Source of the DNA: Cantharellus purpuraceus
Lineage: Eukaryota; Basidiomycota; Agaricomycetes; Cantharellales; Hydnaceae
Direction: 5' to 3'
DNA length: 64,000 nt
Assembly (NCBI GenBank): GCA_025174535.1
Contig: JALBUN010000045.1
Coordinates: forward strand, 3,410,001-3,474,000
The translations under genes were made by a program, and so were the position numbers. The notes beneath the pieces were generated by a model, which was not told the origin of the DNA, searched no databases, and worked only from the letters and a program-made list of their open reading frames with translations. Positions 7,781-46,581 of the stretch are shown here, one piece after another (positions within the stretch are counted from its first letter, which is position 1; every line of letters starts with the position of its first letter).

Positions 7781-10700
7781 TTAGTGGCGAGAGATACCCC
7801 GATCGCATCGATCCCAATCGCGAAGGAGGTCGGGAGCGTTGCGAAGGTTCTTTCGTGGGAGCCACTCGTCATATGATGAGTCGTATCCGATGAAACGCGT
7901 GAGGAGCTCCTGGACATGCCGGCCATTACGGGCCTTTCGCCATCGTTCACCGATGATGGACTCAACCTCGAATTCTGGGAGTAGCGTGAAATCAGCGTGT
8001 TCGAGATCTGAGAGGTCGTGAACCGAAGGAAGGGGGTGAGGAGGAGTAGAGCTCAAGGTGAGCGATGTTAAGGACAGGATGGAGCCCGTATGACGCGGGC
8101 ATGCGAAGGCGATAGGTAGCCGGCCCTAATTTTTGTATGATATCAAAGGGGCCATCGTATTTCATTTGGAGCTTCTTACCTAGGCCTTTCTGAGCATGCA
8201 ATAGACTGAGGGAATGGGGATTGATGAGAACGCGATCGCCAACGTCGAATTCTTGAGCCAGACGACCAGTGTTGAAATTCTTTTGCTGAGCAACCTGCGC
8301 AAATTGCAGGGCTTCTCTAGCCTGAGATCGGTAAGTAGCTAATTCACTTAGGAAGTCCATAGCTTTCGTACTTTCAACTTCATTGGCAGGGGACTTGATT
8401 AAATCAACGCGATCGACCGATCCAACTGGTCACGGGGCCGGCGGGCTGGAAGGCCGGTGAACGCCGTGAGTAGATGAATGAATGTAGGAAGATGGAGTAC
8501 GTGGATGGTAGCCATACAGTAGAAATGCCGGCGCAAATCCAGTCGCGGAGTGTGGGAGGTTATTGTAGGATAGAGCAAATGGAGAGAGGAGAGCCGCCCA
8601 GTTGTCGCACGTCGGGCTTACATAAGAACATAGCGCGGTTTCAAGCGTCTGGTTCAACACCTCAGTTTGACCATCTGCTTGAGGGTGATAGGCTGTAGTT
8701 AGAGCTCTTCTAGTATTTATTTGCTTGCATATCTCTTTCCAGAAGGTGCTGGTCCATCTGGGATCTCTGTTGGATATAATTTGTTTGGGAATTCCATATT
8801 TAGATAGCACATGTTCAAACAGTATCCAAGCAGTTCCCTCCTCATTAATAGTGCTTTGAGTAGGGACAAAGATGCCAAACTTTGTAAGTTTATCCACTAT
8901 CACCAGGATGGAATCGTACCCATTGCTCTCGGGTAATTCCATAATGAAATCCATGGTGATAACTTCAAAAGGATTTTCTGGAATAGGTATGGGCTGCAAC
9001 AGTCCAATAGGTGCGTGTCGCCTTGGTTTGGCTTTCTGGCAAATATCACAGCTTACAACAAACTTCTTGACATCTCTACTCATTCTAGGCCAATAGAAGG
9101 TAGAAGCCAGCTTGTTGTACGTTTTATGATAACCCGCATGAGCTCCTTCAGTGATTTCATCATGAATTTCACTTAGAAGATTAGATTGCTCAGCCTTGGG
9201 TACACATAGCCTGTAATTGCCATTCCAATCTTCAAAGTAAAGCAATCCATCCTCATTTTCAAAAAAGAGTGGATGCTTCAGACTGATCCAATTAGACTCC
9301 TGTCGTAATTCAGATCTGACCCTTTTGAAGTAAGGATCTTTGGCATATGCATCAACTATTTTCTGAATCTCTTCCTGAGCAAGGCTAGAGACTAGATTAT
9401 AGCTTTTGGCTGTCACGTATGGAATGGTGAAATCTTCTTCCAGGCTGGTATTGACTTGGATGGAAGAAGCATGCACGTTCAGTGGAATTCTCTGGTTCTC
9501 TTCTTCATATGCAGCCATTAACATTAAAGTTCTGGCTTCAAAGTGAGGAGAGATATCAGAATAAAAATCCACAAGTGGATCCTGTTCCGAGTCCAGGATA
9601 GTAGGAATGGAGTCATCAGAAGAAGGCCCATCTTGATATGGAACATTCCTTCTGAGTCTGGAAATAGGATCTACATTGGAGTGAACCCGTCCTGCTCGGT
9701 GTACGATTTTTAATTCAGGGTATGCAGCAAATACAGTTCCCCAAGTTAATAACCACCGATTAACATTTTGGTAGGTCCGACTCCAGATGAGGGCTGCATG
9801 GTCTGTAATGGCTACTACTTTCTCCCCTTCAATGTAGGGTTGAAATTTGATAAGACCGTCTCGTAATGCAAGCTCCTCCCTTTCTGTAGGAGAGTAATTC
9901 CTTTCAGCTGGTTTCAAGGTACGAGACCAGTAAGCAATGACTCGTTCTACTGAAACCATAGTGTTTTCAAAGTCTTTATCCCAAGTACCTGGCTTAGGGA
10001 GAGTTTCATCTTTTAACACAGGAATCACCAATTGTGGTACAGGTAATCCTTTGTCATAAGCTGATTTGATTTTCTCATACCCTTTGGTACCTTTGAGATC
10101 TCTGATTTTGAGAGGTTGAATCTGCTGAAGTATAGCAGCGATTCCGACATCACATGCATCAGAGTAGACTCTATATCCGAGACCAGGAATGGCATACGCT
10201 CTGACTGGCGCACTGACAAGGGCATTTTTAGCCAAATCAAAGGCTTCTTGTTGAGTATTGCCCCATTCCCAAGTTGAATTCTTTTTGAGCAATTCAAACA
10301 AGGGAGCTACAATCCATGCATAGAATGGTATATATGAGGAGAAGTATACCACCATTCCGAGGAAGATTTGTAGGTCATGCACAGTCTTTGGTTCTGCCAA
10401 TTCCAGTATAGCATCTATCTTCTCCTTGTGAGTTGATAGACCTAGCCGTGATACCTTTTGTCCTAACAGTAGCAATGACTGGTAGGCCAAATGGCACTTA
10501 GCAGGAGATAAGGTGATTCCAGACTTTTCTATAGCTCCGAACACTTTGTCTAGATGATCCAAGTGTTCTTTGAATGTCTTGGAATATATGACAATATCAT
10601 CAATATAGACCAGGGCAAACACCCATAGAAAAGGTGCTAGGACACCTTGCATCACTCTTTGAAAGACTGCAGGTCCATTCCGATACCCAAAGGGCATCCG

Positions 10701-18230: not shown

Positions 18231-19752
18231 TCATGTCCATCAGCTTGTTAACCCTACTAACATCAAGGAGATTGGCAAAGGTGTTGTTCATGAACTGCTG
18301 GAAGGCACCCAGAGTGTTGGTTAGTCTGAAAGGCATGAGACACACCATTCAAAAGATCCATATCAAGTGCAGAAGGTTTTCCATTTGTTGCCTTCTTGGA
18401 TACAGACTAGATGATAGGCATGTTGGAGATCTATTTTAGAATAGATCTCAGCTTTGCGCAGACTCTCAAGCAGGTCTGCAGGACAGGGTATTGGGTACTG
18501 GTCTTTTTTGGTGATTTTGTTGAGTCCACAGAAATTGACACATAAGTGGAGTGATCTGTCTTTCTTGCAGACAAATAGGACCAGGGCCCCATGGGGGGAT
18601 AGGGATGGGCAGATGAAGCCCGTGGCCAACTTCTCATCTATGATGCTTGTTCAGAAGGATGCTGTTATACAATATTCTGATGTATACAAGATGTTACATC
18701 AGAATATATGAGATATACATCAGAATTTAATAATGATCATAAAAATAGGGAGTTACAATCTGGATATCTTAAATTTTTATAAATATAAATATATATTTCA
18801 TATTTTAATAAACTTTAAAAGATAAGATGTTTGTTATGGATGAACATAATTATTTATATGAATATAACAGTAATATATATACTAATATTATTGGTATAAT
18901 AGAGAATATTTAGATATACAAATGCCAGGTAAGGATTCAAGGTACATTAGATTATTTGACCAGTATAGTATAAGAAAGAATGAGTGAAAGAAATTAAGTG
19001 TAGCAGGAGTAGAATATTCCCTTGAAGCAGTTGCCACCGGTAAATTAAAAAAGAAAAGAATTATTTTTGAGAATCATGTCAAAATATCAAAATATGTTTT
19101 AAATCTAAGTAAATTATATAAATTTGAGAATCATGTATGAAATATCAAAATATGTTTTAATATAAGTATATTATATAAAATTTGAGGAAATGGGTTGTAT
19201 ATTCATATTTGATGTATTTCTAAACAAGCATCTATAAATGTTCAGAGAGCCAGTAACTCTTTTTGGGATAGAGAGTAGATAGGGCCAAGCAGAGGGGCAG
19301 AGTTGTCATCCAACTCAATCTTGAGGTCATATGGTCAGTGTTCCATTAGAGAGTCAGCTTTGGACTTGCTGAACACATTGGCAAACTCATGATACTCCTT
19401 AGGAACCATAGATAGGTCCAGCAGAGCGGGTCAAGCAGAGTGGGCAGTGAGAAGAATTGGATTGGAGAGGTGAACCTGGAACATTTGCGATCCATCCAGT
19501 TTGCTCAGTTGGACAAACACCATAGCATCCACCATCAATATAGATGGAGGGGTAGACAGAGTGTCTATTGGAGTGGAGTCAGTGGAGGCAGAAGATGATT
19601 TCACACCTATAGTTGCTGGTGACATCAGGGATGACACAGCCTGCACTGGAGAATGGAATGTGATATGGCCCAATGCCCAGTCAATCAATGGATTGTAGCA
19701 GGTGAGTCAATTATGTCCAAGAACCACAGAACAGCTGGAGTCAAGCAAAGTA
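18231..19752 (-). pseudogene. Family A protease-RT fragment split by a MITE
   Basis: Minus-strand gypsy A sequence: the pre-RT and post-protease linker (19752-19233) and the N-terminal RT (18641-about 18231), separated only by MITE D1. Removing D1 and one 3-bp duplication rejoins the sequence ending in a stretch equivalent to A1 around 3571-3590. Frames at 19688-19431 and 18629-18363 are open but broken by TGA codons. Compared with A2 this copy shows many C-to-T and G-to-A changes. The right edge abuts element G. Confidence 0.85.
18642..19232 (+). mobile_element. MITE D1, diverged 591-bp copy
   Basis: AT-rich non-coding element with terminal inverted repeats, here GATGCTTGTTCAGAA at the left and the matching TTTCTAAACAAGCATC at the right. 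The 3-bp direct duplication TAT flanks it (18639-18641 and 19233-19235), inside family A RT. Internal sequence matches the three 565-bp copies (33105, 35969, 41871) but with many transitions and small indels, so this is the oldest copy. It has no coding capacity, so it would need a transposase from elsewhere. Confidence 0.85.
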
Positions 19753-21237
19753 ATGAAGCTTGGCCAGCTGTTTAGAGAGCAGTGGCCCCAGCAAGAGCTC
19801 AATGTGGCTGTCAATTTAAATCAACAGTCATGACATGCGCTGAACAGTTATCAGTGCATACAAGCGGCAGGCCTTTCAGGAGACACCTGCCATGAGCAAC
19901 AAGATACCCAATGGATACCTCAAGAAGATGTTCCCCATAACAGGGAACAATCAGTGCCATTGACCCTAGAAGGTCAAGGCATACTGGATCAATTGGAGAC
20001 AATTGATCCTATTGACAGCATTACTTGCATGGTGCGAGTAGCCATAGTCAACAATAGAGACACAGACCCAGAAAAGTCTGTACTTGCCAAGGCGGGCATT
20101 AAAGTATCGCCTCCTGAGCAATATGCAGGAGGTGCAGATCTCAAAGAGTTTGAGATCTTTGTAGCAGGTATGCTATGATGGCTGAAGATGAATAATCTCC
20201 TAGGGCCATCAAGTACAAAGTTTCAGCTATTGTACTTAGGCACTCACCTTAAATGTTATGATATGATTGGAGTTTGCCTTGCTGGGGGGGTAGAATTCAA
20301 ATAGTGGTCAAGGGAGTGATGGGAACAGGATGTATGCATAATTGAATTGGAGATATGATTCAGGAGTATCTTCGTACAAGTTTTGAAAGCAGCAGGAGCA
20401 GATGACTTGGATATGAGTAAATGCTCAATAGAAAAATAGCCAGTGGTTGTATAACTTCATAATTCAGGATTCAGATATAGTATGCAATATTCTGATAGAA
20501 TATGCAAAAGCTAGTAGAAATACATGTTCATTCTGGAGTTATTCCAAATACTAATAGTTTAAACACACAGACGGAATGGGTGAGAGATAATTACTCTAAA
20601 TTGTTCAAGGGCAATACAAGCATAATTGATACATGGTAAGGGGCCTCATGTATATAAAAGTCCCTTGTAAATGCTCTAGGCCAATGATAGAATATGTGAT
20701 GGAGGAATGATGTGGGGGATTGTCCATGATGTGAAAATGATGAAATAAAATGTAAGAAAATGTCCAGGCAGTTCTAGAACTCACAGGGGCTTCTCCTATT
20801 CCCTATACCATCCCTATAATTGTCCCCACTTGTCCCCTTCTCCCCTCTGATCCCCCTAAGCCTTCTTTGTGCTCCTGTCCTCCCATCCCCTTTGTCCCTC
20901 TTCTCCCATGATTCTGGCTCAGTTGCTCATGGAGTAGGTCCAAAGTGAGTTAATGGACTCACTCCCCAATAACATTAAAGGCGAGGCCCAGGAATGGTTC
21001 TACAGGAATGTAGAACATTACAATAGGGCAGTCTAAGACTGGACCCTGGAAACTGCAAACCAAGGATTGCAATGTAGATTTCTACACACTCTGACACATC
21101 ACCATGTGTCGAATAAATTTGACTCTGTAATACAGGGTCAAAGGACCATTCACAAATTAATGAATGACCTAGATAAGTATGCAGGTTGCATGATAATGCT
21201 GCCGGACACGTACATGTACAGGAAGAGGTTTGTAACT
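19753..21237 (+). pseudogene. Element G gag, first part, interrupted by solo LTR I1
   Basis: Plus-strand gag of a gypsy family unlike A or F. Frame 19753-20253 runs with only a few stop codons through an acidic N-terminal region to LKEFEIFVAGML and WLKMNNLLGPSS. After removing LTR I1 and its duplication the protein continues in frame as GTHL-KGEAQEWFYRNVEHYN and RFLHTLTHHHVSNKF, up to RKRFVT at 21237, where A2 is inserted. These are the usual conserved blocks of a basidiomycete gypsy gag. Stops are mostly TGA at expected CGA arginine codons. The DNA carries many perfect short hairpins, for example 19986-20009 (10-bp arms) and 20136-20158 (10-bp arms, 3-base loop). Confidence 0.8.
20254..20974 (-). 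repeat. Solo LTR I1
   Basis: TGTTATGA...AATAACA, 721 bp, flanked by the 5-bp duplication TTAAA (20249-20253 and 20975-20979). Its reverse complement resembles LTR I2 at 58538-59303 over most of its length, for instance around the CAGGGGCTTCTCC stretch near 20800. It sits inside the gag frame of G and its removal restores that frame. A TATATAAAAGTCCC stretch near 20651 could be a promoter on the plus strand. Confidence 0.8.
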
Positions 21238-21765
21238 TGTTATGACTATATTCATTAACGCCCAGATCCCCGTCCGATCCCCTCAGATCCCCACACATAT
21301 GAAATCTATACTCCATTTGGAAACCGCTACGTCTCCATTTTCCTGTCCGATTGTCACCGCCGATTCCGCCCATCCATCTCCAGTTCCAATTGATGCATCA
21401 GCATCACCATAGGAACCTGGACATCCATCCCCATCGGACTCGGACATACTCATGTAAGGCCGTCGGCCTTGGAGACCCATCACCGGAGTAATTATTATTA
21501 GATTTTGAATATGTATTTAAGTTGCCCGACTGGGGACTTCATTCCCCAGTTGGAATATTGAATCATGCCTAGCTCCTGAGTCCAATCCTAACTCTCTAAG
21601 TTGTACTCCATCTCCAAAATCTCGGACACCGGTATTAGTGAGGGCGCAGCACATAAGCTGAAGCCAAGTCCGTTCTGACCCCCACGACGTACTCCGACTC
21701 CGACCCAACCTCCGACCCAACCTCCGATCCAATCTCCGACCCCAAATCAGACCTAGTGCATAACA
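21238..21765 (+). repeat. 5' LTR of A2
   Basis: 528 bp from TGTTATGACTATATTC to GTGCATAACA, the same ends as the solo LTR at 45848-46362. Directly after it lies GTATATTCGAACTGCC; A3 has the same start (30820), and element J has a similar one. The minus strand of the LTR keeps an open frame starting MMGLQG, which in A2's 3' LTR is the start of the antisense gene. Confidence 0.88.
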
Positions 21766-21779
21766 GTATATTCGAACTG

Positions 21780-26711: not shown

Positions 26712-28019
26712 TCATTCTTCTCCGTTCTGAAATTTATAATCATTTTCATTCTTATTTAATACATCGCGTTTCCTTTTTCCCTTTCCCTTTACCTCAGGCT
26801 CTGTCTCCAACGCCATCTCTGACTCCTCATCACTCTCTACATCCGACACCCAATCCTTCTCATCTCCCATGTCTGAATCCTCGTCCAATGGGGCCATGAA
26901 CTTCCGCAACTGACGTAACTTGGCTGTCCGATGACCCTCCAGAACCTCCTTCCGTTTCATCGTCCTCACCAAGTCTACTAACAACCCCTCCATCCACCAA
27001 AGGTGCTCCGACTGCAGGTTAACCAGCTGGATAAGCTGGCCCACAGTGCTATTGGGCGCTGAAACATGCCCCGTACCTGCACCGGTCGTTGCCCCTTCCG
27101 ATCCGACGCCGCTACCCCCAGCTGCCACAGCACTCATCTCCATCCACCTCTTTTTGGTTGGACGACCCTCTGATTCCTTCTCTGCCCCTCCTTGTACCAC
27201 TAGTCGGGGCTTGACACTCCGACTCTGGGGATCGAACTTCCCATCGATCCTACACCCTCCTTTCCGACCCCGACAACGATCGCAGGACCAAAGTCGGCAA
27301 GTTGGGCCAGTAGGCCACACGCACTCCACACCCGCATCATGACATAAGTCGCAAGTTACACCGGGTCCACCAAATGGCTCCGTTGGAGCCAGAGCCTTGG
27401 GTGGTCCACCCCTTCTCGCTGCAGCCTCTAAATGTTCCCTCTCCTCCTCCTTGTCCTGCTGTTCTGCCGCCGCCTTCTCCATCTTGCGCTTGTGAAGCTG
27501 GATCGCCAACCTCGCAACACGCAGCTCCTTCTTACAGGTCGCCAACACGTGACTCTCCGCCTTGCACCATATGACCCTCTGGTCCGCCTCTTGCTTCTCC
27601 GTATCAGCACTCGGGTAGGCCTTCAATGAAAAGACTGTGACATCGAGATTCTTCTTGGTGGTAGCAGCATAGAGCTCCACTCTTTTGCGAGCCTCGACCG
27701 CAGCTACCCAAGCCATCTCCTCGTAGGAATTCAAAGTGGGATCCGGCTCCGCATCCGTCCCAACATCCACGCCCACCTCGGGCTCCGCATTCACACCGAG
27801 ATCCCCATCCGATCCACTCAGATCCCCACACATATAAAATCTATACTCTATTTGGAAACTGTCACATCTCCATTTATCTGTCCAATTGTCACCACTGAAT
27901 CTTGCCCATCCATGTCCGGTTCCGATTGATGCATCAGCATCACCATAGGAACCTGGACATCCGTCCCCATCGGACTTGGACATACTCATGTAAGGCCATT
28001 GGCCTTGGAGACCCATCAC
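26712..28019 (-). CDS. Antisense gene in A2 with a Zn2Cys6 cluster, 435 aa
   Basis: An unbroken minus-strand frame that starts inside the 3' LTR (ATG at 28019) and runs to 26712, between chromodomain and LTR. Residues 1-75 are LTR-encoded. A coiled-coil-like Glu/Lys/Arg-rich segment (about 145-200) is followed by cysteines at 223, 226, 233, 246, 249 and 256, spaced C-x2-C-x6-C-x12-C-x2-C-x6-C. This is the spacing of Gal4-type fungal zinc clusters, so DNA binding is likely. The C-terminus is acidic (EDSDMGDEKDW, ESDEESEM) and ends with a basic KGKGKRKRD stretch like a nuclear signal. It is open although sense-strand gag and pol are broken. It could regulate the element or be a captured host regulator. 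Confidence 0.7.
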   Translation of the reverse strand: MMGLQGQWPYMSMSKSDGDGCPGSYGDADASIGTGHGWARFSGDNWTDKWRCDSFQIEYRFYMCGDLSGSDGDLGVNAEPEVGVDVGTDAEPDPTLNSYEEMAWVAAVEARKRVELYAATTKKNLDVTVFSLKAYPSADTEKQEADQRVIWCKAESHVLATCKKELRVARLAIQLHKRKMEKAAAEQQDKEEEREHLEAAARRGGPPKALAPTEPFGGPGVTCDLCHDAGVECVWPTGPTCRLWSCDRCRGRKGGCRIDGKFDPQSRSVKPRLVVQGGAEKESEGRPTKKRWMEMSAVAAGGSGVGSEGATTGAGTGHVSAPNSTVGQLIQLVNLQSEHLWWMEGLLVDLVRTMKRKEVLEGHRTAKLRQLRKFMAPLDEDSDMGDEKDWVSDVESDEESEMALETEPEVKGKGKRKRDVLNKNENDYKFQNGEE

Positions 28020-28313
28020 CGGAGTAATTATTATTAGATTTCAAATATGTATTTAAGCTGCCCGACTGGGGACCTCATTCCCCAGTTGGAATATTGAATC
28101 ACGCCTAGTTCCTAAGTCTGATCCTAACTCTCTAAGTCATACTCTGTCTCCAAAATCTTGGACACCAGTATTAGTGAGGGCGCAGCACATAAGCTGAAGC
28201 CAAGTCTGTTCTGACCCTCATGACATACCCCGACTCCCTCTCCAACTCCAACCAAACCTCTGACCTGACCTCCAACCCAATCTCCAACCTCCAATTGGAC
28301 CTAGTGTGTAACA
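27793..28313 (+). repeat. 3' LTR of A2, first bases replaced
   Basis: Matches the 5' LTR from the CAGATCCCC stretch (about base 30 of the LTR) to the end GTGTGTAACA at 28313. The expected TGTTATGACTATATTC start is missing; instead the sequence passes without a break into the antisense gene. Many transitions distinguish it from the 5' LTR, so the insertion is not recent. Confidence 0.8.
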
Positions 28314-30013
28314 GAACCTTTGAGACAAGAAGTTCTCAAGAAGGGCTTAAATGCTGAGTTTAGCAGTATTGAGCAGTTGTATGAAACTGCTTGAATGATA
28401 GAGGAAGCAATGTGATATCACAATGGTATGCAATGCCCAGAGAACATGACTAACACGTCCCCCTCAACCCATAGACCAGTGGTCAATAGAACTACTGGTA
28501 TGATGAATATGGGGAGTTGACCCATGCCCCATGGACACTTGTATACAGCTCCCAACACACACTCATGACAAGTGAGTGTGTCAAGGTTGGAACCCTGTAA
28601 TGGAAGCTCTGGGTCTAATTCCAACAATTACCTTTTCAAGGGTAATTATCAATCAAAACCACCAGCACACGTGAGTGGTGATTGATCAAACAATGTTACT
28701 AGTAATGTTGTGTGCTACAAATGTGGCCAGACAGGTCACATGTGACCCAGCTGCCCCAAACTAATGGGCAACATAAGGTCAGCTGCAGTCTGAAAGGATG
28801 TGTCCTCACACATAGTGGAGGATAAGGTAGATGGATTCTCCCTGATAGAGGGAGAACATGAAGAAGCAATGGATGATCCCAAGGACCATCTAGATGAAAA
28901 AATATCAGCTATAGAAGTGGCTGACAAATGGGATGAAGAGGTCACCCCATACAAATAGGACAACCACAATGACACCCCCAAAAAGGAGGCTATGCCAATG
29001 TATCGCTCTAATGCAATACAAATTCAACCCAATGATCAAATTCCACTGAAACACACCTATGCAATGTGTTTCTGTAGTGCAACAAGATTCCCAAGAAGCA
29101 GGGAATCATGACAGCTGCATATAGCTGCTGTCAGTGTTGACAGATCAGCTGAACCTATGTATAATCATAGGAGCTGACAGAAGTCAACAGCATGACCAGA
29201 TAGACCATGCATAGAAAATAAAACAATCTCTGGGTATTGGGAGATTGGTGGAACACTAGCCCACTGTCTATTAGACAGTGGAAGCAAGGGGATAATGAGA
29301 TCCCCTGAATTCACACGTGTGACAGGTATGAAAACCTTTGCACTAGAGCAACCCATTGCACTGCAATTAGCATGCATTGGGAGCAGGAGTACCATAATTA
29401 TGGTATGCATACTACCATAAAGTTTGGTAGTTGGGACATTGAAGAATATTTCAATGTCACCAATGTTGAGTATTACAATGTAATACTCAGTACCCTATTC
29501 CTATGAAAGCTAGGAATATGCCTGGACTTTAATGGCCCAAGCCAAATCATGATAGGAACTGAAGAAGTCCCCACCAATGAAGAGCATAATACTGATGCTC
29601 TTCGTACCCCATCATGGGGTATAAACTCAATGCAAAGAAGGAGTATTGGTGTGAATAAATGATGCCAAGGGGGTAACTCTAAACACAAGCTACCCACAAT
29701 GCAGTCCTTCCCAAAAGAAGGACTAGACTCAGTAAAGGCCCCCCCAATGGAGGATCCAAATAAGAGCACAACATGAATAGCTTCATTGCATGAAGGATCA
29801 ACTGCTTACATGGCTGGTCAGATCCCTCAGTTGAGGGATCAATGGAAAGAAAAGTATGCTGACCTATTCGGCAGCATACCCTTAGAACTTCCCCCATTTA
29901 GGGAAGTTACCCACGAGATTAATCTCATGGATCCTGACAAGCGAATACATTATCACTTGCCTAAGTGTCCAGAGCACTACTGAGCAGAACTTTCAGAGAA
30001 AGGTCTGCAATAC
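28314..30013 (+). pseudogene. Element G gag end, protease and start of RT
   Basis: Continues the G frame interrupted by A2: EPLRQEVLKKGLNAEF, then a zinc knuckle CYKCGQTGHM-x-PSC (about 28708-28752, with TGA inside), a protease motif LLDSGSKGIM (about 29268-29297), and the segment ahead of RT (PPFREVTHEINLMDPDKR, then LPKCPEHY, to 29985). It ends at 30013 where an H LTR fragment starts. Many stops are TGA at arginine positions. The stretch is saturated with perfect inverted repeats of 8-9 bp arms (see findings), which do not occur at this density in A, F or J. Confidence 0.8.
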
Positions 30014-30390
30014 TGTATGGGAACTGGTTTTCCCTTAAAAGATCTTGTTTAAAGTCCCAAAACTGTACAATTTCGCTTCATGGCCTTAAAATATCAGCAT
30101 ATATGTGCTGCTTTCTCTTGATTCAGGGCCATTCAAATATTCTCTATTTTTTCATATTTTTTTCGGGAATTTTCCATGCAGAAATGAGTCTACAAACTTA
30201 TTGTTCTGCTGGGTGAAGTTTTGGGACCCACATGGGCCTGCAAACCTTCGCAGATGTCAGCAGCCCCAAAGTCAGCCGGAGTCACCCGGACAACTGACTC
30301 ATTTTCACATGACTCATTTCAATCTCCAACTCAATCTGGTCACCACTGCCAGTAAATGCTCAATATCTTCACAACCACTGCACCTCCTGA
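30014..30390 (+). repeat. Diverged LTR H fragment, 5' part
   Basis: Begins TGTATGGGAACTGG, the H LTR start, and follows the reverse complement of 1250-1020 with blocks such as AAATATCAGCATATAT and TTCAAATATTCTCTATTTT. It is cut at 30390 by the truncated A3 LTR. It is much more diverged than the two copies at the window start, so it belongs to an older subfamily. Confidence 0.7.
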
Positions 30391-30819
30391 CGATTCCGCC
30401 CATCCGTCTCCGGTTCCGATTGATGCATCGGCATCACCATAGGAACCCGGACGTCTGTCCCCATTGGACTCGGACATACTCATGCAAGGCCGTTGGCCTC
30501 AGAGACCCATCACCGGAGTAATTATTATTAGATTTCAAATATGTATTTAAGTTGCCCGACTGGGGACTTCATTCCCCAGTTGGAATATTGAATCACGCCT
30601 AGTTCCTAAGTCCGATCCTAACTCTCTAAGTCATACTCCGTCTCCAAAATCTCAGACACCAGTATTAGTGAGGGTGCAGCACATAAGCTGAAGCCAAGTC
30701 CGTCCCAACCCCCACGACGTGCTCTGACTCTGACCCAACCTCCGACCCAACTTCCGACCCAAACTCCAACCCAAACTCCAACCCAATCTCCGACCCCCAA
30801 TCGGACCTAGTGCGTAACA
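30391..30819 (+). repeat. 5' LTR of A3, lacking its first part
   Basis: Starts within the LTR at CGATTCCGCCCATCC and ends GTGCGTAACA at 30819, followed by the family A internal start GTATATTCAAACTGCC. About 100 bp of the LTR 5' end are missing, cut at the junction with the H fragment. Confidence 0.85.
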
Positions 30820-30849
30820 GTATATTCAAACTGCCACACTCACTCCTAC

Positions 30850-31985
30850 CAATGCCATGATCCACTGCCAATTTCAAACGTGCACGAACCGTCAAGGTGC
30901 CCCCTCCCAGCATCAACACCATCCCCGAGGTCATCGAAGAACCGACAGACCACATAGAGGCCATCAATGAAGAAGACAACACCCCGCCCTCTCCAAATCT
31001 GGCACAAGCCATCTCCCTGCTTGCCAGCAGCATCCATAACCCACAAGCCCCTAAGTCCCGGACCAAGGTCTGAGAACCCAACCCCTTCAATGGCTCCAAT
31101 CCGTGAAAGCTCCAGCCATTCTTGGTGCAATGCCAGTTGAATTTCCATGACCGCCCCAACACATTCACATCTGATTGGGTGAAGGTCACCTTTGCCATGT
31201 CCTATCTCAAGGGCACCGCACTGGACTACTTTGAGCCAGCATGCATGGATGACTCCGATGACCTGATATGGTCAGAGGACTACTCCAACTTCATCTCCGA
31301 ACTTCGGACCAATTTTGGTCTTTACAACCCCGAGGCCGATGCCGAGAACGAACTCAATTGACTTCAGATGAAGGAAAATCACAAAATTGCAAAATACATT
31401 GTGAGTTTCCAGCAGCTAGCTCTGAAAGTCCAATGGGGCGATGCCACACTCCAACGCCAATTTTACGTTGGACTCCCATCCCGCATCAAGGACAAGATAT
31501 CACGCATCAGTAAGCTGGATACTTTGGCTACCCTCCGCAAGCTCACCCAATCCATCGATGCCCGTTATTGGGAACGTCAATCCGAGGTCTCCCGTGAAAA
31601 CTCGGCTAACAACAAATCATCGGACAAGACCCCAAAGTCCAACAAGGGGTCCGATAAGCGGGCCACCGCCAACTCAGGCCAGAAGTCAAACACTGGTAAC
31701 GCTGCCGCTTCCGGTTCCGGTCAGAACAATTCTGGCACCAGCAATAACTCCGGAGCTTGCAAGGGTACTCCAGACCTCTCCACCAAGCTGGGGAAGGACA
31801 GAAAACTCACCCAGCAGGAACGCCAGTGCCACATGGACAACAACCTCTGTCTGTTCTGTGGAAAGCCTGGTCACCAAGCCAAGGATTGCAACAAGGCAAC
31901 CTTGTCTGCAGCAAAGGCAAAGGGCCATGCCACCAACGCCATGATGGACAAGTCCGACGCTAAAGTGATGGACCAAAACAAATAG
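30850..31985 (+). pseudogene. A3 gag
   Basis: Same gag as A2 but without the 11-bp deletion: frame 31122-31361 continues to 31368-31985 with single TGA codons at about 31070, 31107 and 31361, all at likely CGA sites. It has a zinc knuckle CLFCGKPGHQAKDC near 31850-31895 and a TAG at 31983-31985. It gives a cleaner view of the family A capsid than A2. Confidence 0.85.
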
Positions 31986-33104: not shown

Positions 33105-33669
33105 GACGCTTGTTCGGAATCATGTCAGTATACAATATTCTGATGTATAGGAGATATACATCAGGATTTCAATGATACATAAAGCCAGGGAGTTACAATT
33201 TGGATATCTTAAAAGATTTCGGATGTGTGAAATTTTCATAAATATAAACATATATTCTATATTTTAATAAACTTTAAAAGATAAGATATTTGGTTGAGAT
33301 GAACATAATTATTTACATGGATATAATAGGAATGTATATATGAATATAATTGGTATTATATAGGGTATTTAGATATACAAATACCAGGTGGGGATTAAAG
33401 ATAGTTCAAATTATGTTACAAGTATTGTATAAGAAAGAATCAATGATATTTGGATGTTCCTTCAAGAGAGTTGCCACCACTAAATGGGGAAAAAACAATT
33501 ATTTTTGAGAATTATGCCAAAATATCACAATATGTTTTAATCTAGTATATTGTGTAAAATTTGAGAATCATGTTGAAATATGAAAATAAGTTTGAATTGA
33601 AGTGTATTGTATAAAATTTGAGGAAAATAGGTTGTACATACGTATTTGTTGTATTTCTGAATAAGCGTC
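33105..33669 (+). mobile_element. MITE D2, 565 bp
   Basis: Ends GACGCTTGTTCGGAA and TTTCTGAATAAGCGTC; 3-bp duplication ATG on both sides (33102-33104, 33670-33672). It has the same length and near identical sequence to D3 and D4. It is inserted exactly at the start codon of the B1 ORF, so the duplicated ATG leaves the ORF with its own start codon after the MITE. Confidence 0.9.
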
Positions 33670-35968: not shown

Positions 35969-36533
35969 GACGCTTGTTCAGAAATACAACAAATACATAT
36001 ATACAACCTATTTTCCTCAAATTTTATACAATACACTTCAATTCAAACTTATTTTCATATTTCAACATGATTCTCAAATTTTACACAATATACTAGATTA
36101 AAACATATTGTGATATTTTGGCATAATTCTCAAAAATAATTGTTTTTTCCCCATTTAGTGGTGGCAACTCTCTTGAGGGAACATCCAAATATCATTGATT
36201 CTTTCTTATACAATACTTGTAACATAATTTGAACTATCTTTAATCCCCACCTGGTATTTGTATATCTAAATACCCTATATAATACCAATTATATTAATAC
36301 AGACATTCCTATTATATCCATGTAAATGATTATGTTCATCTCAACCAAATATCTTATCTTTTAAAGTTTATTAAAATATAGAATATATGTTTATATTTAT
36401 GAAAATTTCACACATCCAAAATCTTTTAAGATATCCAAATTGTAACTCCCTGGCTTTATGTATCATTGAAATTCTGATGTATATCTCCTATACATCAGAA
36501 TATTGTATACTGACATGATTCCGAACAAGCGTC
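35969..36533 (-). mobile_element. MITE D3, 565 bp, inverted
   Basis: Same element as D2 and D4 in the opposite orientation; ends GACGCTTGTTCAGAA and TTCCGAACAAGCGTC, duplication AAG on both sides (35966-35968, 36534-36536). It lies in the C-terminal tail of the E2 chromodomain protein. Removing it and one AAG joins WLFP to RRFENFTEPP in frame. Confidence 0.9.
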
Positions 36534-40911: not shown

Positions 40912-40997
40912 CTGACAACGTACTCCGACTCCAACCCAACTTCCAACCCGACCTCTGACCCAATCTCCAACCCCCAATCGGACCTAGTGTGTAACAA
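40912..40997 (+). repeat. A3 LTR tail, about 86 bp
   Basis: Only the last part of an A LTR, from CGTACTCCGACTCC to GTGTGTAACA, joined straight to the chromodomain end. The antisense gene and most of the 3' LTR seen in A2 are deleted. Confidence 0.8.
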
Positions 40998-41348
40998 AGG
41001 TATGGCTGGCATCACCAGCCATATATTCCTTTCGAAGCTGATCAATCTCAGCTTTGATTTCTGATAGGGCAAACTCTTTGAGTTTGCCCAGTTGCTTAGC
41101 ACCCTTGGGGATGCTAGCCAGGAGGAGACCATGATCGTGGTCATATCCCTCCCAGATTGGGTCAGTGTCATCCCAATCCTGACCCTTGAACCCTTGAGGG
41201 TCAACCCAAGTCAATTTGCTCAGGAGATTGTCCTCTTTGGTGAGATTGATCATTTCCTGTGACAATGAAGCCATGGGCTGTGATGGCATAATGGCAGGCA
41301 ATGATTTGCCTGCTGTAGCACACGATAGTGATGCTACTGGGGCCAAGT

Positions 41349-41631
41349 TGTCAGGGTTCATATGACTCAGTTTCTATTTTTAGTCCCTTTCTTATCGCCT
41401 CTATCAGCACAGCCTGCTAGGGTGTGCTCTCCTATCTCTCCCCTATTGTTCCCCTATCTTGGTTCCCCTATTCCTTGCATCATTCAGTATAAAGATTTTG
41501 CCTGGTGTAGCACGGTTTCCTCAGCTTGATCTCTGAGGATATCCGCTGTACCAGCTGGCATTATCTCTTATCGGCTCTCACTTATTGAGTATCTTGTTGT
41601 TGTGGCCCCATCATTCAGCGCAGCCCTCACA
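41349..41631 (+). repeat. Solo LTR E4, 283 bp
   Basis: TGTCAGGG...GCCCTCACA with CAAGT duplicated (41344-41348, 41632-41636). It is the short form without the second 22-bp repeat, plus about 20 bp of other deletions. Its removal joins KLTTVHL to APVASLS in frame. Confidence 0.9.
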
Positions 41632-41870
41632 CAAGTGCACTGTTGTGAGCTTGGTCTTGAATGTAAGAGGTCCTCTATCAGCAGCCTCCTTCAGTGTTTT
41701 TAACTCATCTCTGAGATGAGTTACTTTGGACTTCTCATTGTTGAGAAGTCCTTCAAGTTCTTGGACCTGTGCAAACAGGTCCGAGTTATCCTTGTACATC
41801 TTATTGTAGTCTTCATGATAAGGTGTTGTGACATCATCTTCAGTGTTGCATGTAAGTCACAGCCATGTGA

Positions 41871-42435
41871 GACGCTTGTTCAGAATCATGTCAGTATACA
41901 ATATTCTGATGTATAGGAGATATACATCAGGATTTCAATGATACATAAAGCCAGGGAGTTACAATTTGGATATCTTAAAAGATTTTGGATGTGTGAAATT
42001 TTCATAAATATAAACATATATTCTATATTTTAATAAACTTTAAAAGATGAGATATTTGGTTGAGATGAATATAATCATTTACATGGATATAATAGGAATG
42101 TCTGTATTAATATAATTGGTATTATATAGGGTATTTAGATATACAAATACCAGGTGGGGATTAAAGATAGTTCAAATTATGTTACAAGTATTGTATAAGA
42201 AAGAATCAATGATATTTGGATGTTCCCTCAAAAGAGTTACCACCACTAAATGGGGAGAAAACAGTTATTTTTGAGAATTATGCCAAAATATCAAAATATA
42301 TTTTAATCTAGTATATTGTGTAAAATTTGAGAGTCATGTTGAAATATGAAAATAAGTTTGAATTGAAGTGTATTATGTAAAATTTGAGGAAAATAGGTTG
42401 TACATACGTATTTGTTGTATTTCTGAACAAGCGTC
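41871..42435 (+). mobile_element. MITE D4, 565 bp
   Basis: Ends GACGCTTGTTCAGAA and TTTCTGAACAAGCGTC; duplication TGA on both sides (41868-41870, 42436-42438). Same length and orientation as D2. It sits within the hairpin-rich reading frame, which continues across it after excision. Confidence 0.9.
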
Positions 42436-42794
42436 TGACTCTTGATGCTCTTTCCACTAAAGCAGTGGAAAGATATAGTTGGCCTCCATTTTGGGCCTCA
42501 ATTAAGTGCAACACATATGCATCGCACTTGTTGCACCTGTGAGGGTGATGGATGGCAGTGCCACCATGCCATCCACCAATTTTCCAGGTCATCTCATCTT
42601 GATGACCTCTGATCATATCTGCAGCACTTGTTGCCAGTGCTGCCACTGTGGAAGTTTGTTCAACTTAATGCAATGAATTATTGCTTACCCCTTTCATGCT
42701 ACTATGAGTAGCACAATAGTGAACTGCTCCCTAGAGGAGCAGTTTTTTCTACCATCAAGCTGCCTGTTGTTGTGGTAGCTCTATCCTTAGATGC

Positions 42795-44078
42795 TGATGA
42801 GCCAGGATGCATCGAGGATGTATATCGAACCACTCTGATAGTCCAACTCTGCCAGTGTCTTTTGTATCAAGGTTTTAAATAGTGCTGCAACTCCCTTTCC
42901 ACCTCAGTCTCTATTTCAGGCCATCAATCATTATCAGCCTTCTATTCACACCAATCCTTTCATCATTATTCACATGGCTTCCAATTCTATTCCTCTCTCC
43001 AACATCTCTTCTAATAATATGTCACACTGGTCTCTGGACATGGAGGACTATCAAAAATACACTGAGCTCCACAGGCATGTTAAGCCACCTCCATGTGTCA
43101 AAATACTTCCAAAACTCTTTCAACATCCAAGTCCCCACCATGTCTCTCTTATGCCATTGATGATCCTATATTCTTTCACAATTCCATTGAACCATATACA
43201 TTCCTTGGCATTTTGCCTCTATATCATAACATGGATAGAAGAGTCAAACGTGAGGTAGAATTTCAGTCGCCATCGCTGACCTATCCTCCCACTTCAATCC
43301 GACTCAGGTTACATCGTGTCAGGCAAAGGGACCGAATACCCTTGGAACGGGATACCATATGGAGACGGATCACTCAGACAATAAGGAGTATTTGTTGTGG
43401 ATGCTGACTGAAGTCCTCATGTGACTCAGGGTTGATTTACCTTTGGAGCTGTAGGGAAGATGGTATTGGTGGATGTTTCTATTGTTCTTTTATATGACTC
43501 ACCCCTGTTTCATCTTTTAATTCATTCATACATGACTTACTCATCCTTTGTCTATTTTGGTTCTTTTATTACTCATCACCCCCTATTCTTACAAAGATGA
43601 CCCCTATCTGTCACTTCATTTCTTCATGATTTCCCCATTAGTAGTTCAACTTCACATGCTTTGTCAGCAGGCTTGATCAGCATTTCTTGCATCATATCAC
43701 ATCATTTGCTCCTCATATTGTGTTGTTGTGCCCTGGGGATTTGTATCACCTGAAACCAGCTTTCAGGTACCTCTCAACCGGGCTCCCCATCATCCTCCAG
43801 TCACAGAGCATGATCAACCATCTCACCAGAAAGTCCCAGAGCATGATCTACCATTTTGACCATACTTTTCACTCCCCATTATCCTCCAGTCACAGAGCAC
43901 TATAAATCAGCTTGACAGCACCCTCCTCATTCACCCTCACCAGACACAGAGCACTATTACACTTACCCATTACTCAGTGCTACCCCTTGACCTGACTGTT
44001 TTTTTGGCATGCTGAACAACTGTTTGCTAGGACCGTTGTGTGCAGGCTTATAGGATCTATTCCATAAGCAAACTGACA
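42795..44078 (+). repeat. LTR B3, rearranged copy
   Basis: TGATGAGCCAGG...AAGCAAACTGACA. Compared with B2 it lacks the segment holding the TATA box (join near 43747) and has an extra block near 43830-43930. The flanks do not match (ATGC left, TCAT right), and the flanking G pieces have opposite orientations, so the copy probably marks a recombination joint. CpG sites are often TpG or CpA here. Confidence 0.75.
42974..43407 (+). pseudogene. B3 copy of the LTR-encoded ORF
   Basis: Homologue of the B2 ORF: frame 42974 onward (MASNSIPLSN) shifts near 43125-43140 after a small deletion and continues in the frame ending at 43407 with SICCGC. Most differences to B2 are C/T or G/A. Confidence 0.65.
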
Positions 44079-44535
44079 TCATGCTTCAGTCACTGGAGTG
44101 TATGATTGGAGGAATCACTCCTCCAAAGAACATACTGAATTAGAGCTTGTGCTCTGGTTTAGATGATCAGGAGGCATTGCCCCTGATCATGCTGCTATAT
44201 TAGAGGAGTTTGCTAAATGCATCACCTCTGGAGCAGCATTTAACTAGCCCACCAGAGTTGGTAAGTGAAAGCAGGAGACTCAGGGAGTCTCTCAAGCAGC
44301 TCATAAAGCTGCTAAATGCTCTCTTGCTGAGCATTTAGGTCATGATCCACTTAATTGTAAACTCAATTGGGATGCTGCAGTAGCAATTGCATCCTCCTCA
44401 TCCATTCAAGTGGATGAGGATACTGCAACCACATCAGGGATGACTGAGAGCCATCCCCCTCTGGAGCCATATGAACAAGATGACCATATGGACACCGACT
44501 CATTGGAACAGCTTCATAAGGAGCTGTATGATTAA
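44079..44535 (+). pseudogene. G-type polyprotein C-terminus, hairpin-rich
   Basis: Plus-strand frame of about 150 codons with three internal stops (TGA, TAG, TGA), including HTELELVLWF, SLAEHLGHDPLNCKLNW and an acidic end DTDSLEQLHKELYD, stop TAA at 44533-44535. The polypurine tract and LTR follow directly, so it is the 3' end of a polyprotein. Its orientation is opposite to the gag piece at 40998-42794. It is dense in perfect hairpins, for example 44106-44126. Confidence 0.6.
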
Positions 44536-44563
44536 AAAGTACTGAATGAGATTGTGTCTCATT

Positions 44564-44579
44564 CAAAAAAAGGGGAGGG
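44564..44579 (+). promoter_or_regulatory. Polypurine tract of element G
   Basis: AAAAAAAGGGGAGGG lies directly before TGTAAGTACC, the start of LTR G. It fixes the 3' end of the element. Confidence 0.7.
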
Positions 44580-45249
44580 TGTAAGTACCCAAGGTACTTA
44601 CTTACTATAACATATAAGTACAATTAATATATGCAGCATTCCCTTAAGGAATGCTGTCCTCTTGGTAGATATATGTGTCCATAGGGTGCATATGTATAGT
44701 TATTATGTAAGCCAGTGGGCCCAGTACACATGTGGGTCCACTTATAGTAGAGAGAACTTAGTAACTACCACACTGTACAGCACATTGCCCAACCAATACA
44801 CTTGGTTGAGTTCTGTGCAATGGTGTGAACTAAGATACCCAATAACAATTTCCTACCAACAGTGGGTATGGTTCCACTCTTGGGACCTGAATACTTGATA
44901 TCTGTCAGGGTTCATATGACTCAGTTTCTATTTTTAGTACCTTTCTTATTGCCCCTATCAGCACAGCCTGTTAGGGTGCACTCTCCTATCTCTCCCCTAT
45001 TGTTCCCTATCTTGCTTCCCCTATTCCTTGCATCATCTGGTATAAAGATTTTGCCTGGTGCAGCACGGTTTCCTCAGCTTGATCTCTGAGGATATCTGCT
45101 GTACTAGGTGAGTCCCATGTATTTATCAGTGACAAGTGTATAGACTGAGGATATCCGCTGTGCCAGCTGGCATTATCTCTTATCGGCTCTCACTTATTGA
45201 GTGTCTTGTTATTGTGGCCTTGTCATTCAGCATAGCCCTCACAATATCA
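44580..45249 (+). repeat. LTR of element G, interrupted by E3
   Basis: Starts TGTAAGTACCCAAGGTACTTAC after the polypurine tract and, once E3 (44903-45243) and one ATATC are removed, most likely ends ...TTGATATCA at 45249. It contains further perfect hairpins (TAAGTACC/GGTACTTA at the start; CAGCATTCC/GGAATGCTG near 44633-44655). It is inserted into the AT-rich unknown ORF to its right. Confidence 0.6.
44903..45243 (+). repeat. Solo LTR E3, 341 bp
   Basis: TGTCAGGG...GCCCTCACA with ATATC duplicated (44898-44902, 45244-45248). Long form, with both copies of the 22-bp repeat. It lies at the very end of LTR G. Confidence 0.9.
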
Positions 45250-46581
45250 CCTGTTATATCATTCCATATAAGTGGCCTTATAGGAATAAGTTTGGCATAA
45301 TTCCTAAGAAACTTATTGTACACATCAGTATCCCAAATACTAACAGTAGCCTTGGAATGTCTTCCAATGGATATATGGAATCTAGCACAAAAATCCATAC
45401 CTTCAATAGAATTAACTTTCTGCCTATTATCACAATAAGATATATACTTCTCGCTGTTCCTAATCCCGTTTCCCTTGAAGCTAACAAAAATCTCTCTTAG
45501 TTTATCCTCATCATCTGTCTTATCAATATCAGTATCTACACTAACAATGTTACCATCATCTGAATCAGGTTTCTTCTCATGGTTGTTAAGGTATATAACA
45601 ATCATCTTGTTATGTCCTAACAAGTTCTTATTTGCATCATAAGAATTAAATGGTAGCAATGCTGGCATCCCCTTCTCAGCATTAGGATTAGGAAGAGCAT
45701 TATCCAGAATTGCTTCCACAGGATTTTGAGTAACCTTCCAGAACTTGTAATGTTTATCATTGTCCTTAATACCCTCTAATGTTGCTCCTATTATCTCATT
45801 CTCCTTTGAATACCATGAGCAAAACAAGTTCTTTTCCTTTACAATAATGTTATGACTATATTCATTAACGCCCAGATCACCGTCTGATCCACTCAGATCC
45901 CCACGCATATGAAATCTATACTCCATTTGGAAACTGCCACATCTCCATTTACCTGTCTGATTGTCACTGCCAATTCCACCCATCCATCTCCAGTTCCAAT
46001 TGATGCTTCAGCATCACCATAGGAACCCAGACATCAATCCCTGTCGGACTCGGACATACTCATGTAAGGCCATCAGCCTTGGAGACCCATCACCAGAGTA
46101 ATTATTATTAGATTTCAAATATGTATTTAAGTTGCCCGACTGGGGACTTCATTCCCCAGTTCGAATATTGAATCACGCCTAGTTCCTAAGTCCAATCCTA
46201 ACTCTCTAAGTTGTACTCCATCTCCAAAACCTCGGACACCAGTATTAGTGAGGGTGCAGCACATAAGCTGAAGCCAAGTCTGTTCTGACCCCCATGACGT
46301 ACCCGACTCCTTCTCCGACTCCAACCCAATCTCCGACCCCCAATCAGACCTAGTGCATAACAAATAACCAACTTGAACCCCATTCTGGAGTAGTTATTAA
46401 TTCCTAGTGAAATACTACTACTTTCTAATGTGGGGGATTCACCTTTTGCTTTGTTAAGAGAATAGCCAAGGCTTAGCAAGGAACCTACAGCTGAGGCTAC
46501 ATTAGCCATGGCTATTATACTGGTCAGTATGTTCATAGCTGCCATTGTTAGAATACAAGATATTAAAATGTTGGATATCAT
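45249..46581 (-). pseudogene. Unrecognised AT-rich ORF, interrupted by a solo LTR, C-terminus cut
   Basis: Minus-strand frame starting MISNILISCILTMAAM. The first about 40 residues are hydrophobic like a signal or membrane segment. After removal of the A LTR (45848-46362) and one AATAA, GFKLVI joins KEKNLFCSWYSKE in frame and the protein runs on without stops to about 45250, where LTR G cuts it (roughly 270 residues). The middle is Asp/Asn/Lys rich (DTDIDKTDDED). Codon use is strongly A/T-ending, unlike the host genes at 14.7-16.6 kb or the P450. I do not recognise a family. Options are a fast-evolving secreted host protein, a gene from a virus or plasmid, or cargo of an unknown element. Confidence 0.55.
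45848..46362 (+). repeat. Solo LTR of family A, 515 bp
   Basis: TGTTATGACTATATTC...GTGCATAACA with AATAA duplicated (45843-45847, 46363-46367). It is the only complete A LTR with a perfect duplication, so it defines the family termini. Confidence 0.92.

What the first reader, a model, noticed from the sequence alone, without database searches (positions are those of the whole stretch)
28314..30013. Element G coding DNA is saturated with short perfect inverted repeats
In 1.7 kb I find at least ten perfect inverted repeats with 8-9 bp arms and loops of 0-10 bases: 28557-28581, 29261-29281, 29390-29405, 29468-29488, 29579-29603, 29605-29621, 29703-29724, 29821-29840, 29854-29879, 29886-29908, plus many with 6-7 bp arms. 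For equal base composition about 0.3 with arms of 8 or more and loops up to 12 is expected. The gag, zinc knuckle, protease and pre-RT motifs are still readable. Families A, F and J next to it show nothing comparable. Either the element's RNA is selected to fold into a chain of hairpins, or a template-switching repair process has been turning near-palindromes into perfect ones. I know of no description of such a retroelement.
Basis: seen in the sequence. Interest (0 to 1): 0.9.

Follow-up and report, generated by a model that had tools for sequence, protein, structure and literature searches.

The report
Hairpin-saturated fungal Ty3 retrotransposon family
A broken family of fungal jumping genes carries short perfect hairpins along the parts of its sequence that were examined, protein-coding parts included, far more than chance gives, and the pattern looks copied in rather than selected for RNA folding.

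Summary
The 1.7 kb contain 14 non-overlapping perfect inverted repeats (arm at least 8, loop at most 12), against 0.3 in dinucleotide shuffles; all ten listed repeats are real. The fragment is a truncated piece of a longer Ty3-type LTR retrotransposon family with dozens of decayed copies, hairpin-dense wherever sampled (4.4-7.9 per kb in 14 loci). Four sister-element loci (44-48% RT identity) are at background. The excess survives shuffles that keep protein and codon usage (30 against 1.9). Window stretches at 19.8-21.2 and 41.0-44.9 kb hold further pieces of the family. The hairpins predate the copies; apparent covariation among copies is mostly independent CpG decay. The stems are short-range (loops 0-12, sharp cut-off), mostly Watson-Crick perfect, discrete and strand-symmetric, unlike MS2, Qbeta, 23S rRNA and a toy model of folding selection. 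I favour long-running fold-back template switching (quasipalindrome correction) during cDNA synthesis of the master lineage (0.45) over selection for discrete hairpin units (0.3). No switching event was caught and no arm polarity found. The hits listed by eight library searches name no such retroelement.

The parts
28314..30013 (+). Truncated fragment of hairpin-saturated Ty3-type family G: gag tail, CCHC knuckle, protease, pre-RT; cut on its 5' side by an unrelated LTR
   Evidence: longer matches in the genome are 84-92% identical
28557..28581 (.). perfect inverted repeat, arm 9, loop 7
   Evidence: site hairpin in 7 of 21 copies, window included
28713..28757 (+). CCHC zinc-knuckle reading frame with one stop inside; motif recognised from recall
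28836..28856 (.). perfect inverted repeat, arm 8, loop 5
   Evidence: 12 of 21 copies
29048..29072 (.). perfect inverted repeat, arm 8, loop 9
   Evidence: 5 of 21 copies
29261..29281 (.). perfect inverted repeat, arm 10, loop 1; lies over the protease LLDSGS codons
   Evidence: 20 of 21 copies
29390..29405 (.). perfect palindrome, arm 8, loop 0
   Evidence: 16 of 21 copies
29435..29458 (.). perfect inverted repeat, arm 9, loop 6
   Evidence: 6 of 21 copies
29467..29489 (.). perfect inverted repeat, arm 11, loop 1
   Evidence: 14 of 21 copies
29496..29518 (.). perfect inverted repeat, arm 8, loop 7
   Evidence: 3 of 21 copies
29579..29603 (.). perfect inverted repeat, arm 9, loop 7
   Evidence: 8 of 21 copies
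29605..29621 (.). perfect inverted repeat, arm 8, loop 1
   Evidence: 6 of 21 copies
29703..29724 (.). perfect inverted repeat, arm 8, loop 6
   Evidence: 16 of 21 copies
29821..29840 (.). perfect inverted repeat, arm 9, loop 2
   Evidence: 13 of 21 copies
29854..29879 (.). perfect inverted repeat, arm 8, loop 10
   Evidence: 9 of 21 copies
29886..29908 (.). perfect inverted repeat, arm 8, loop 7
   Evidence: 15 of 21 copies
19757..21236 (+). Second fragment of family G (leader and N-terminal gag part); homologous at 19757-20256 and 20972-21236; hairpins at 19986, 20136, 20211 and 20997
   Evidence: 4 repeats of arm 8 or more in 1487 bp (19750-21236) against 0.28
40997..41872 (-). Fragment of the family's 3' region downstream of pol (in two pieces, 40997-41350 and 41555-41872); minus-strand frame looks coiled-coil-like by eye
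   Evidence: 3 repeats of arm 8 or more in each piece against 0.16
42436..42795 (-). Fragment of the family's 3' region; 42583-42789 matches the 3' end of the longer copy L029/L037
   Evidence: 5 repeats of arm 8 or more against 0.08
43746..44579 (+). Last internal stretch before the 3' LTR, hairpin-rich; most of its part 44084-44578 lies at 40 listed places in the genome, window included
44580..44851 (+). Start of the family's own LTR, 93% identical over 273 bp to the start of L029's element

Best explanation
This is a decayed Ty3-type LTR retrotransposon family. Its master lineage became saturated with short perfect hairpins before the burst that made today's copies. The likeliest cause is repeated local fold-back template switching (quasipalindrome correction) during cDNA synthesis. 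The growing strand slips off, pairs with a short complementary stretch within about 12 bases, copies itself for a few bases and returns. A near-palindrome thereby becomes a perfect one. Events that the proteins tolerate stay and accumulate over many cycles. Shown here: the hairpins are real, limited to this family in the DNA sampled, perfect, local, discrete, strand-symmetric, compatible with coding, and shared by the copies. Inferred: that copying made them, and that the family's own reverse transcriptase is the agent.
For: Density (arm 8 or more) is 4.4-7.9 per kb in the family DNA of 14 fetched loci and 4.5 in the window's, against 0-0.72 in the rest of the 18 loci scanned and 0.42 in the rest of the window. 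Four sister-element loci are at background: 0-1 repeats against 0.7-1.05. The excess is confined to loops 0-12 with a sharp drop: at arm 7 or more, 26 stems with loops 9-12 and 5 with loops 13-16. Stems of exactly 5 bp show no excess, direct and mirror repeats none. Complementarity is at the random value, 0.22-0.27, from two bases outside the stems on. Perfect to one-G.U stems of 8 or more in L029: 39:10, against 8:10 in MS2 plus Qbeta (Fisher p 0.014); three other copies give 26:5, 25:8 and 17:9. Folding excess is equal on both strands (plus-minus difference -0.51+-0.60, 0.05+-0.75, 0.10+-0.76 in three copies) while MS2, Qbeta and 23S give -2.2+-1.0, -1.2+-1.0 and -2.1+-0.8. No loop motif stands out. 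Template switching is reported to make perfect stems in yeast genes and RNA genes (PMC8604942, abstract and passages; PMC8794818, passages).
Against: No switching event was caught. Of 18 flagged rows (some the same site in two tiles) in which a stem is broken by 3 or more pairs in most other copies, nearly all show CpG-type changes and the last belongs to an unrelated repeat (judged by eye; 13 of 17 tiles had enough copies). No polarity: amino-acid conservation is 0.575 in 5' arms and 0.597 in 3' arms (p 0.58); RNase H alone leans one way (0.707 against 0.558) and gag the other (0.494 against 0.654). Arms are barely less conserved than the rest (0.586 against 0.626, p 0.41), so wholesale rewriting of arms is unlikely and small, filtered corrections are needed. 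Sister elements presumably use a similar enzyme but lack the pattern. Loops are mildly A-richer than the rest (0.367 against 0.339; 0.396 against 0.341 at arm 7 or more). MS2 and Qbeta also carry extra short perfect hairpins, so selection can make a weaker version of the pattern. Strand symmetry is also what unstructured sister loci show.
Confidence: 0.45

Rival explanations
1. Selection for many discrete short hairpins as units. The single-stranded genome (RNA, cDNA or both) was selected to carry hairpins every few tens of bases, for packaging by Gag, or to keep sense and antisense strands from annealing and feeding the fungal RNA interference machinery.
For: Coding shuffles show strong use of synonymous freedom (30 against 1.88). 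The register that wastes third positions is under-used (16 of 80; p 0.029 against shuffles). Amino acids in arms are nearly as conserved as elsewhere. MS2 and Qbeta, which live as single strands, show a weaker form: 55 stems of 6 or more with loops to 12 against 18 expected in 7.8 kb, where the family has 152 against 25 in 7.8 kb. One pair between L029 and L046 looks compensatory outside CpG.
Against: No common loop motif (62 trimers tested, best p 0.006). Few stems with one G.U pair, no strand preference, no stem extension past a mismatch, no covariation beyond chance among the copies tested. A retrotransposon master lineage has a small population in which to hold so many weakly selected stems (argument from general knowledge).
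Confidence: 0.3
2. Generic selection for stable RNA folding, as in RNA viruses with genome-scale ordered RNA structure.
For: Folding energy is 29-35% beyond shuffles in two family stretches, both strands, and z reaches -15.8.
Against: A toy model on random coding sequence with a similar folding gain leaves 0.6-1.2 repeats of arm 8 or more per kb, many stems with loops of 15-50, and, if the plus strand is selected, a 4 kcal strand difference. L029 has about 7 per kb, few loops beyond 12 and no strand difference.
Confidence: 0.1
3. A host DNA process (replication template switching or repair) turns near-palindromes into perfect ones in the genome.
For: Template switching is described for genomic DNA (PMC7954356, search listing only; PMC8604942, abstract and passages).
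Against: Hairpins are shared by copies at scattered sites, so they precede insertion. Sister elements and flanks lack them. Copies show decay.
Confidence: 0.05
4. Composition or CpG-decay artefact.
For: The family is strongly CpG-depleted (observed/expected 0.14 in L029, 0.10 in the window fragment), and CpG decay mimics covariation.
Against: At arm 8, dinucleotide and codon-preserving shuffles give 46 and 16 times fewer repeats. Where CpGs of both arms decayed, pairs end complementary in 94 and broken in 120 cells, and decay of one CpG broke 52 more.
Confidence: 0.02

Closest known systems
Ty3/gypsy LTR retrotransposons (Metaviridae), fungal
   Same: Gag capsid, protease, RT, RNase H and integrase zinc-binding matches in the usual order, with LTRs.
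   Different: Saturation with short perfect hairpins; four sister-element loci in the same genome lack it.
Quasipalindrome correction / template-switch mutations in yeast and RNA genes (PMC8604942, PMC8794818)
   Same: Makes perfect arms, in the yeast passages read 8-16 bp, also inside coding DNA.
   Different: Reported as single events in DNA replication; here 136 stem-loops of arm 6 or more (24 expected) in one 7.8-kb stretch of a reverse-transcribed element, with no event observed.
ssRNA phage genomes MS2 and Qbeta
   Same: Coding RNA enriched in local perfect hairpins.
   Different: About four times less dense at arm 7 or more (25 against 102), more G.U per perfect stem, leaning to the plus strand.
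Genome-scale ordered RNA structure of some plus-strand RNA viruses (recalled; only search listings seen)
   Same: Folding energy far below shuffles along the genome.
   Different: Not known to me to consist of short perfect hairpins; none of the five papers listed is about such a retrotransposon by title or abstract start.

Membership tests
Ty3/gypsy LTR retrotransposon | RNase H of retroelement type | tested here: met
   PF17919 E 2e-14 and PF17917 E 6e-12, over cut-off
Ty3/gypsy LTR retrotransposon | Retroviral-type aspartic protease | tested here: met
   RVP_2 21.9 bits against cut-off 20.3; LLDSGS frame
Ty3/gypsy LTR retrotransposon | Reverse transcriptase | tested here: met
   RVT_1 E 3.6e-6 on a 119-aa piece, 27.3 bits against cut-off 29.6, so just below it; the piece also matches places that score over the cut-off, at about 35%
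Ty3/gypsy LTR retrotransposon | Integrase downstream of RT (Ty3 order) | tested here: met
   Integrase_H2C2 E 4.7e-8 downstream of RNase H; catalytic core recognised by eye only
Ty3/gypsy LTR retrotransposon | Ty3-type capsid | tested here: inconclusive
   Ty3_capsid E 1.4e-4, below its cut-off
Ty3/gypsy LTR retrotransposon | LTR at both ends of one copy | tested here: inconclusive
   Same LTR start before the leader in L029 and after the 3' region in the window and L051; not shown on one copy
Chromovirus clade | Integrase C-terminal chromodomain | tested here: not met
   80-aa candidate piece of one copy has no Pfam match at E 0.01
RNA selected for plus-strand folding (GORS-like) | Folding energy below shuffles along the genome | tested here: met
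RNA selected for plus-strand folding (GORS-like) | Plus strand folds better than minus strand | tested here: not met
   with MS2, Qbeta and 23S as comparison
RNA selected for plus-strand folding (GORS-like) | Compensatory covariation | tested here: not met
   only decayed copies of one family could be tested; one compensatory-looking pair in L046
Quasipalindrome correction | Perfect short-spacer inverted repeats in excess | tested here: met
Quasipalindrome correction | Clustered changes in one arm that perfect a stem | tested here: inconclusive
   18 flagged rows, nearly all CpG-type
Quasipalindrome correction | Consistent template arm (polarity) | tested here: not met
   0.575 against 0.597, p 0.58; polarity is not required if both strands switch
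Quasipalindrome correction | Loop inversions | not tested
   No inversion search was run

The most novel reading that the evidence does not exclude
A reverse transcriptase with a habit of local fold-back copying has written perfect hairpins over its element, coding sequence included. That would be a mutational drive that shapes an element's structure without selection for structure.
Probability: 0.4. Interest if true: 0.9.

Novelty: new variant of a known kind. Interest (0 to 1): 0.8.

Why it matters
If copying made the hairpins, structure in coding RNA can arise from polymerase behaviour alone, and a family like this is a natural record of that bias at high dose. If selection made them, it is an extreme case of hairpin-coded genes outside RNA viruses. 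Either way folding energy alone is a poor guide to RNA selection, and apparent covariation in CpG-decaying repeats can be plain decay.

Tried and rejected
Chance and composition: rejected by dinucleotide and codon-preserving shuffles. Covariation as evidence for structure: first seen, then traced to CpG decay (94 complementary against 120 not; 5 non-CpG double changes in 8230 cells, 2.2 expected; stems present in under 30% of copies were left out, and L039-L046 were not in that alignment). At CpG-type columns one search counts 84 double changes against 47 expected from a simple product, which does not allow for CpG pairs decaying in both arms; I rely there. A comparison of L046 with L029 shows one pair that looks compensatory outside CpG. 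The G.U against A.C test: no G.U excess in the family overall (at the loosest setting even 8 G.U to 18 A.C, 7 to 4 before removal of sites seen in two tiles, and arm 9 or more, 1081 to 626, lean the other way), but MS2 and Qbeta showed none either (5:5 and 5:4), so I count it as uninformative. Nominal loops of 0-2 as an argument against RNA: dropped, since the phages show them too. The idea that window region 41-44.9 kb is a second, unrelated hairpin family (after): rejected, it is the 3' part of the same family. Relatives outside the genome: only proteins. Three for gag at 60-65% identity, five for the integrase end, 209 for RNase H, of which 120 were listed and used. Viral contigs gave none; genome contigs gave one 17-residue match that I did not pursue. 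Rfam: no match at E 1 in 27500-31000. Papers: the lists (several of them capped, 20 of up to 1,601) show no retroelement of this kind; only PMC8604942 (abstract, section list and passages) and PMC8794818 (passages) were opened, the rest seen as listings. One script timed out without output and was rerun in a faster form; part used an unsupported BLAST setting, repaired; one search ran on loci that one search had not delivered and gave nothing.

Full report
WHAT IS THERE. Region 28314-30013 has 14 non-overlapping perfect inverted repeats with arms of at least 8 and loops of at most 12, against 0.305 in shuffles. The reading frames of gag end, zinc knuckle, protease and pre-RT are visible (motifs from recall) but interrupted by stops.

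THE ELEMENT. The fragment has 49 matching places in the genome, some of them pieces of one copy (40 of 211 candidates were scored, so a lower bound). Twenty-one copies, the window's included, were aligned. Longer copies show that the window piece is cut off: on the 5' side by an LTR of another family, on the 3' side at about 30013. In L029 the element starts at 2417 with an LTR and runs through leader, gag, protease, RT, RNase H and integrase. Its 3' part is known from other copies: the stretches that lie at 42.4-42.8, 41.0-41.9 and 43.7-44.6 kb of the window follow, then the LTR again at 44580. A first impression that the 41-44.9 kb stretch was a separate hairpin element was wrong.

HOW FAR IT GOES. 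Of 18 loci scanned (L029-L046), 14 hold family DNA, with 4.4-7.9 repeats of arm 8 or more per kb; their other DNA and the four sister loci have 0-0.72. The window has 4.5 in its family DNA and 0.42 elsewhere (the reference copy carries foreign inserts, which blurs these figures a little). The four sister-element loci (44-48% RT identity; L039 and L040 are clearly one family by their proteins) have 0-1 repeats in 3-4 kb, as expected by chance. Four other stretches of the window have 1, 0, 1 and 2 in 3.8-6 kb against 0.95-1.15. The trait is thus confined to one family in what I sampled; the genome as a whole could not be scanned. In L029, 12 open pieces keep 30 repeats against 1.88 in 200 shuffles that hold protein and codon usage.

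THE SHAPE OF THE SIGNAL. In one 7.8-kb stretch of a natural copy there are 136 stem-loops of arm 6 or more (24 expected), covering 38% of the bases, loops included. Arms of exactly 5 are at chance (52 against 54), 6 and longer in excess. The excess ends at loop 12. There is no excess of direct or mirror repeats. Complementarity two or more bases outside the stems is 0.22-0.27, the chance value. Loops show no motif. The folding excess is the same on both strands.

CONTROLS. MS2 and Qbeta show a milder excess of the same kind (55 against 18 at arm 6 or more); 16S and 23S rRNA show little (15 against 11). This weakens two arguments that I first held, G.U against A.C and very short loops, and I dropped both. 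Perfect against one-G.U stems still separates L029 (39:10) from the phages (8:10), p 0.014; other copies give 26:5, 25:8 and 17:9. The plus-strand advantage of the structured RNAs (-2.2+-1.0, -1.2+-1.0, -2.1+-0.8) is absent in the family and in two sister loci (0.19+-0.78, 0.36+-0.78). Each figure alone is modest, and the family copies are not independent. In a toy model, random coding sequence was pushed to a comparable folding gain (about -10 kcal per 150 nt; the family has about -12). It gave 0.6 (plus strand) and 1.2 (both strands) repeats of arm 8 or more per kb, and many long-range stems. Selection for folding energy alone therefore does not readily produce this pattern; selection for discrete hairpins could.

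HISTORY. The 21 copies share the hairpin sites. They differ by 0.400 at CpG-type columns and 0.043 elsewhere. Stem columns decay freely: G.U and A.C arise about alike (1485 and 1599 cells at arm 8 or more), and where both arms of a CpG decayed the result is complementary in 94 cells and not in 120. Non-CpG double changes number 5 in 8230 cells, 2.2 expected. So the master lineage already had the hairpins, and I see nothing that maintains them in the genomic copies.

PROTEIN. Using 120 RNase H relatives, five integrase and three gag relatives, residues in arms match relatives at 0.586 (149 codons), elsewhere at 0.626 (261 codons), p 0.41; 5' and 3' arms at 0.575 and 0.597 (superseding, where sites without relatives were counted in n). 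By piece the arms lean in opposite directions. The hairpins were thus fitted into working proteins mostly at little cost. Full rewriting of an arm would have cost more; small corrections filtered by protein function would not (inference).

MECHANISM. I rank quasipalindrome correction during cDNA synthesis first (0.45), discrete-hairpin selection second (0.3), generic folding selection third (0.1). The first explains perfect Watson-Crick arms, short loops with a limit, abrupt ends, strand symmetry, lack of motif and family restriction. It does not explain why sisters lack it unless the enzyme differs, and no event was caught. The published parallel is single events in yeast genes and RNA genes (PMC8604942, PMC8794818). 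The agent, timing and rate are inference.

NOVELTY. As an element it is an ordinary Ty3-type retrotransposon; a chromodomain was looked for and not found by Pfam. As a sequence it is unlike anything in the titles and abstract starts that eight searches listed. I call it a new variant of a known kind.

Noticed in passing
window 21361-21766, 27904-28314, 30398-30820, 45973-46362, 59391-59591: An unrelated LTR family sits in chain around the fragment, with three LTRs and repeated internal sequence between 21361 and 32469; its LTR carries its own hairpin (ACTGGGGAC..CATTCCCCAGT).
   Followed up: partly
window 33105-33669, 35969-36533, 41871-42435; L029 about 8406-8970: A 565-bp repeat, 97-98% alike among the window copies, also inserted in L029's element; it has an inverted repeat (CTGATGTATA...) near one end and may be a young MITE-type transposon.
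   Followed up: no
150 listed RVT_1 places of the genome: Stops inside the RT frames are nearly all TGA, as CpG decay of CGA codons would give (inference).
   Followed up: no
L029 9685-9871: Several adjacent hairpins share the arm GAACTACC/GGTAGTTC or a close variant, as if a hairpin unit had been duplicated in tandem.
   Followed up: no
P0003: A metagenome protein seems to join the family's gag N-terminal part directly to its last 3' stretch (by eye), so internally deleted relatives may exist elsewhere.
   Followed up: no
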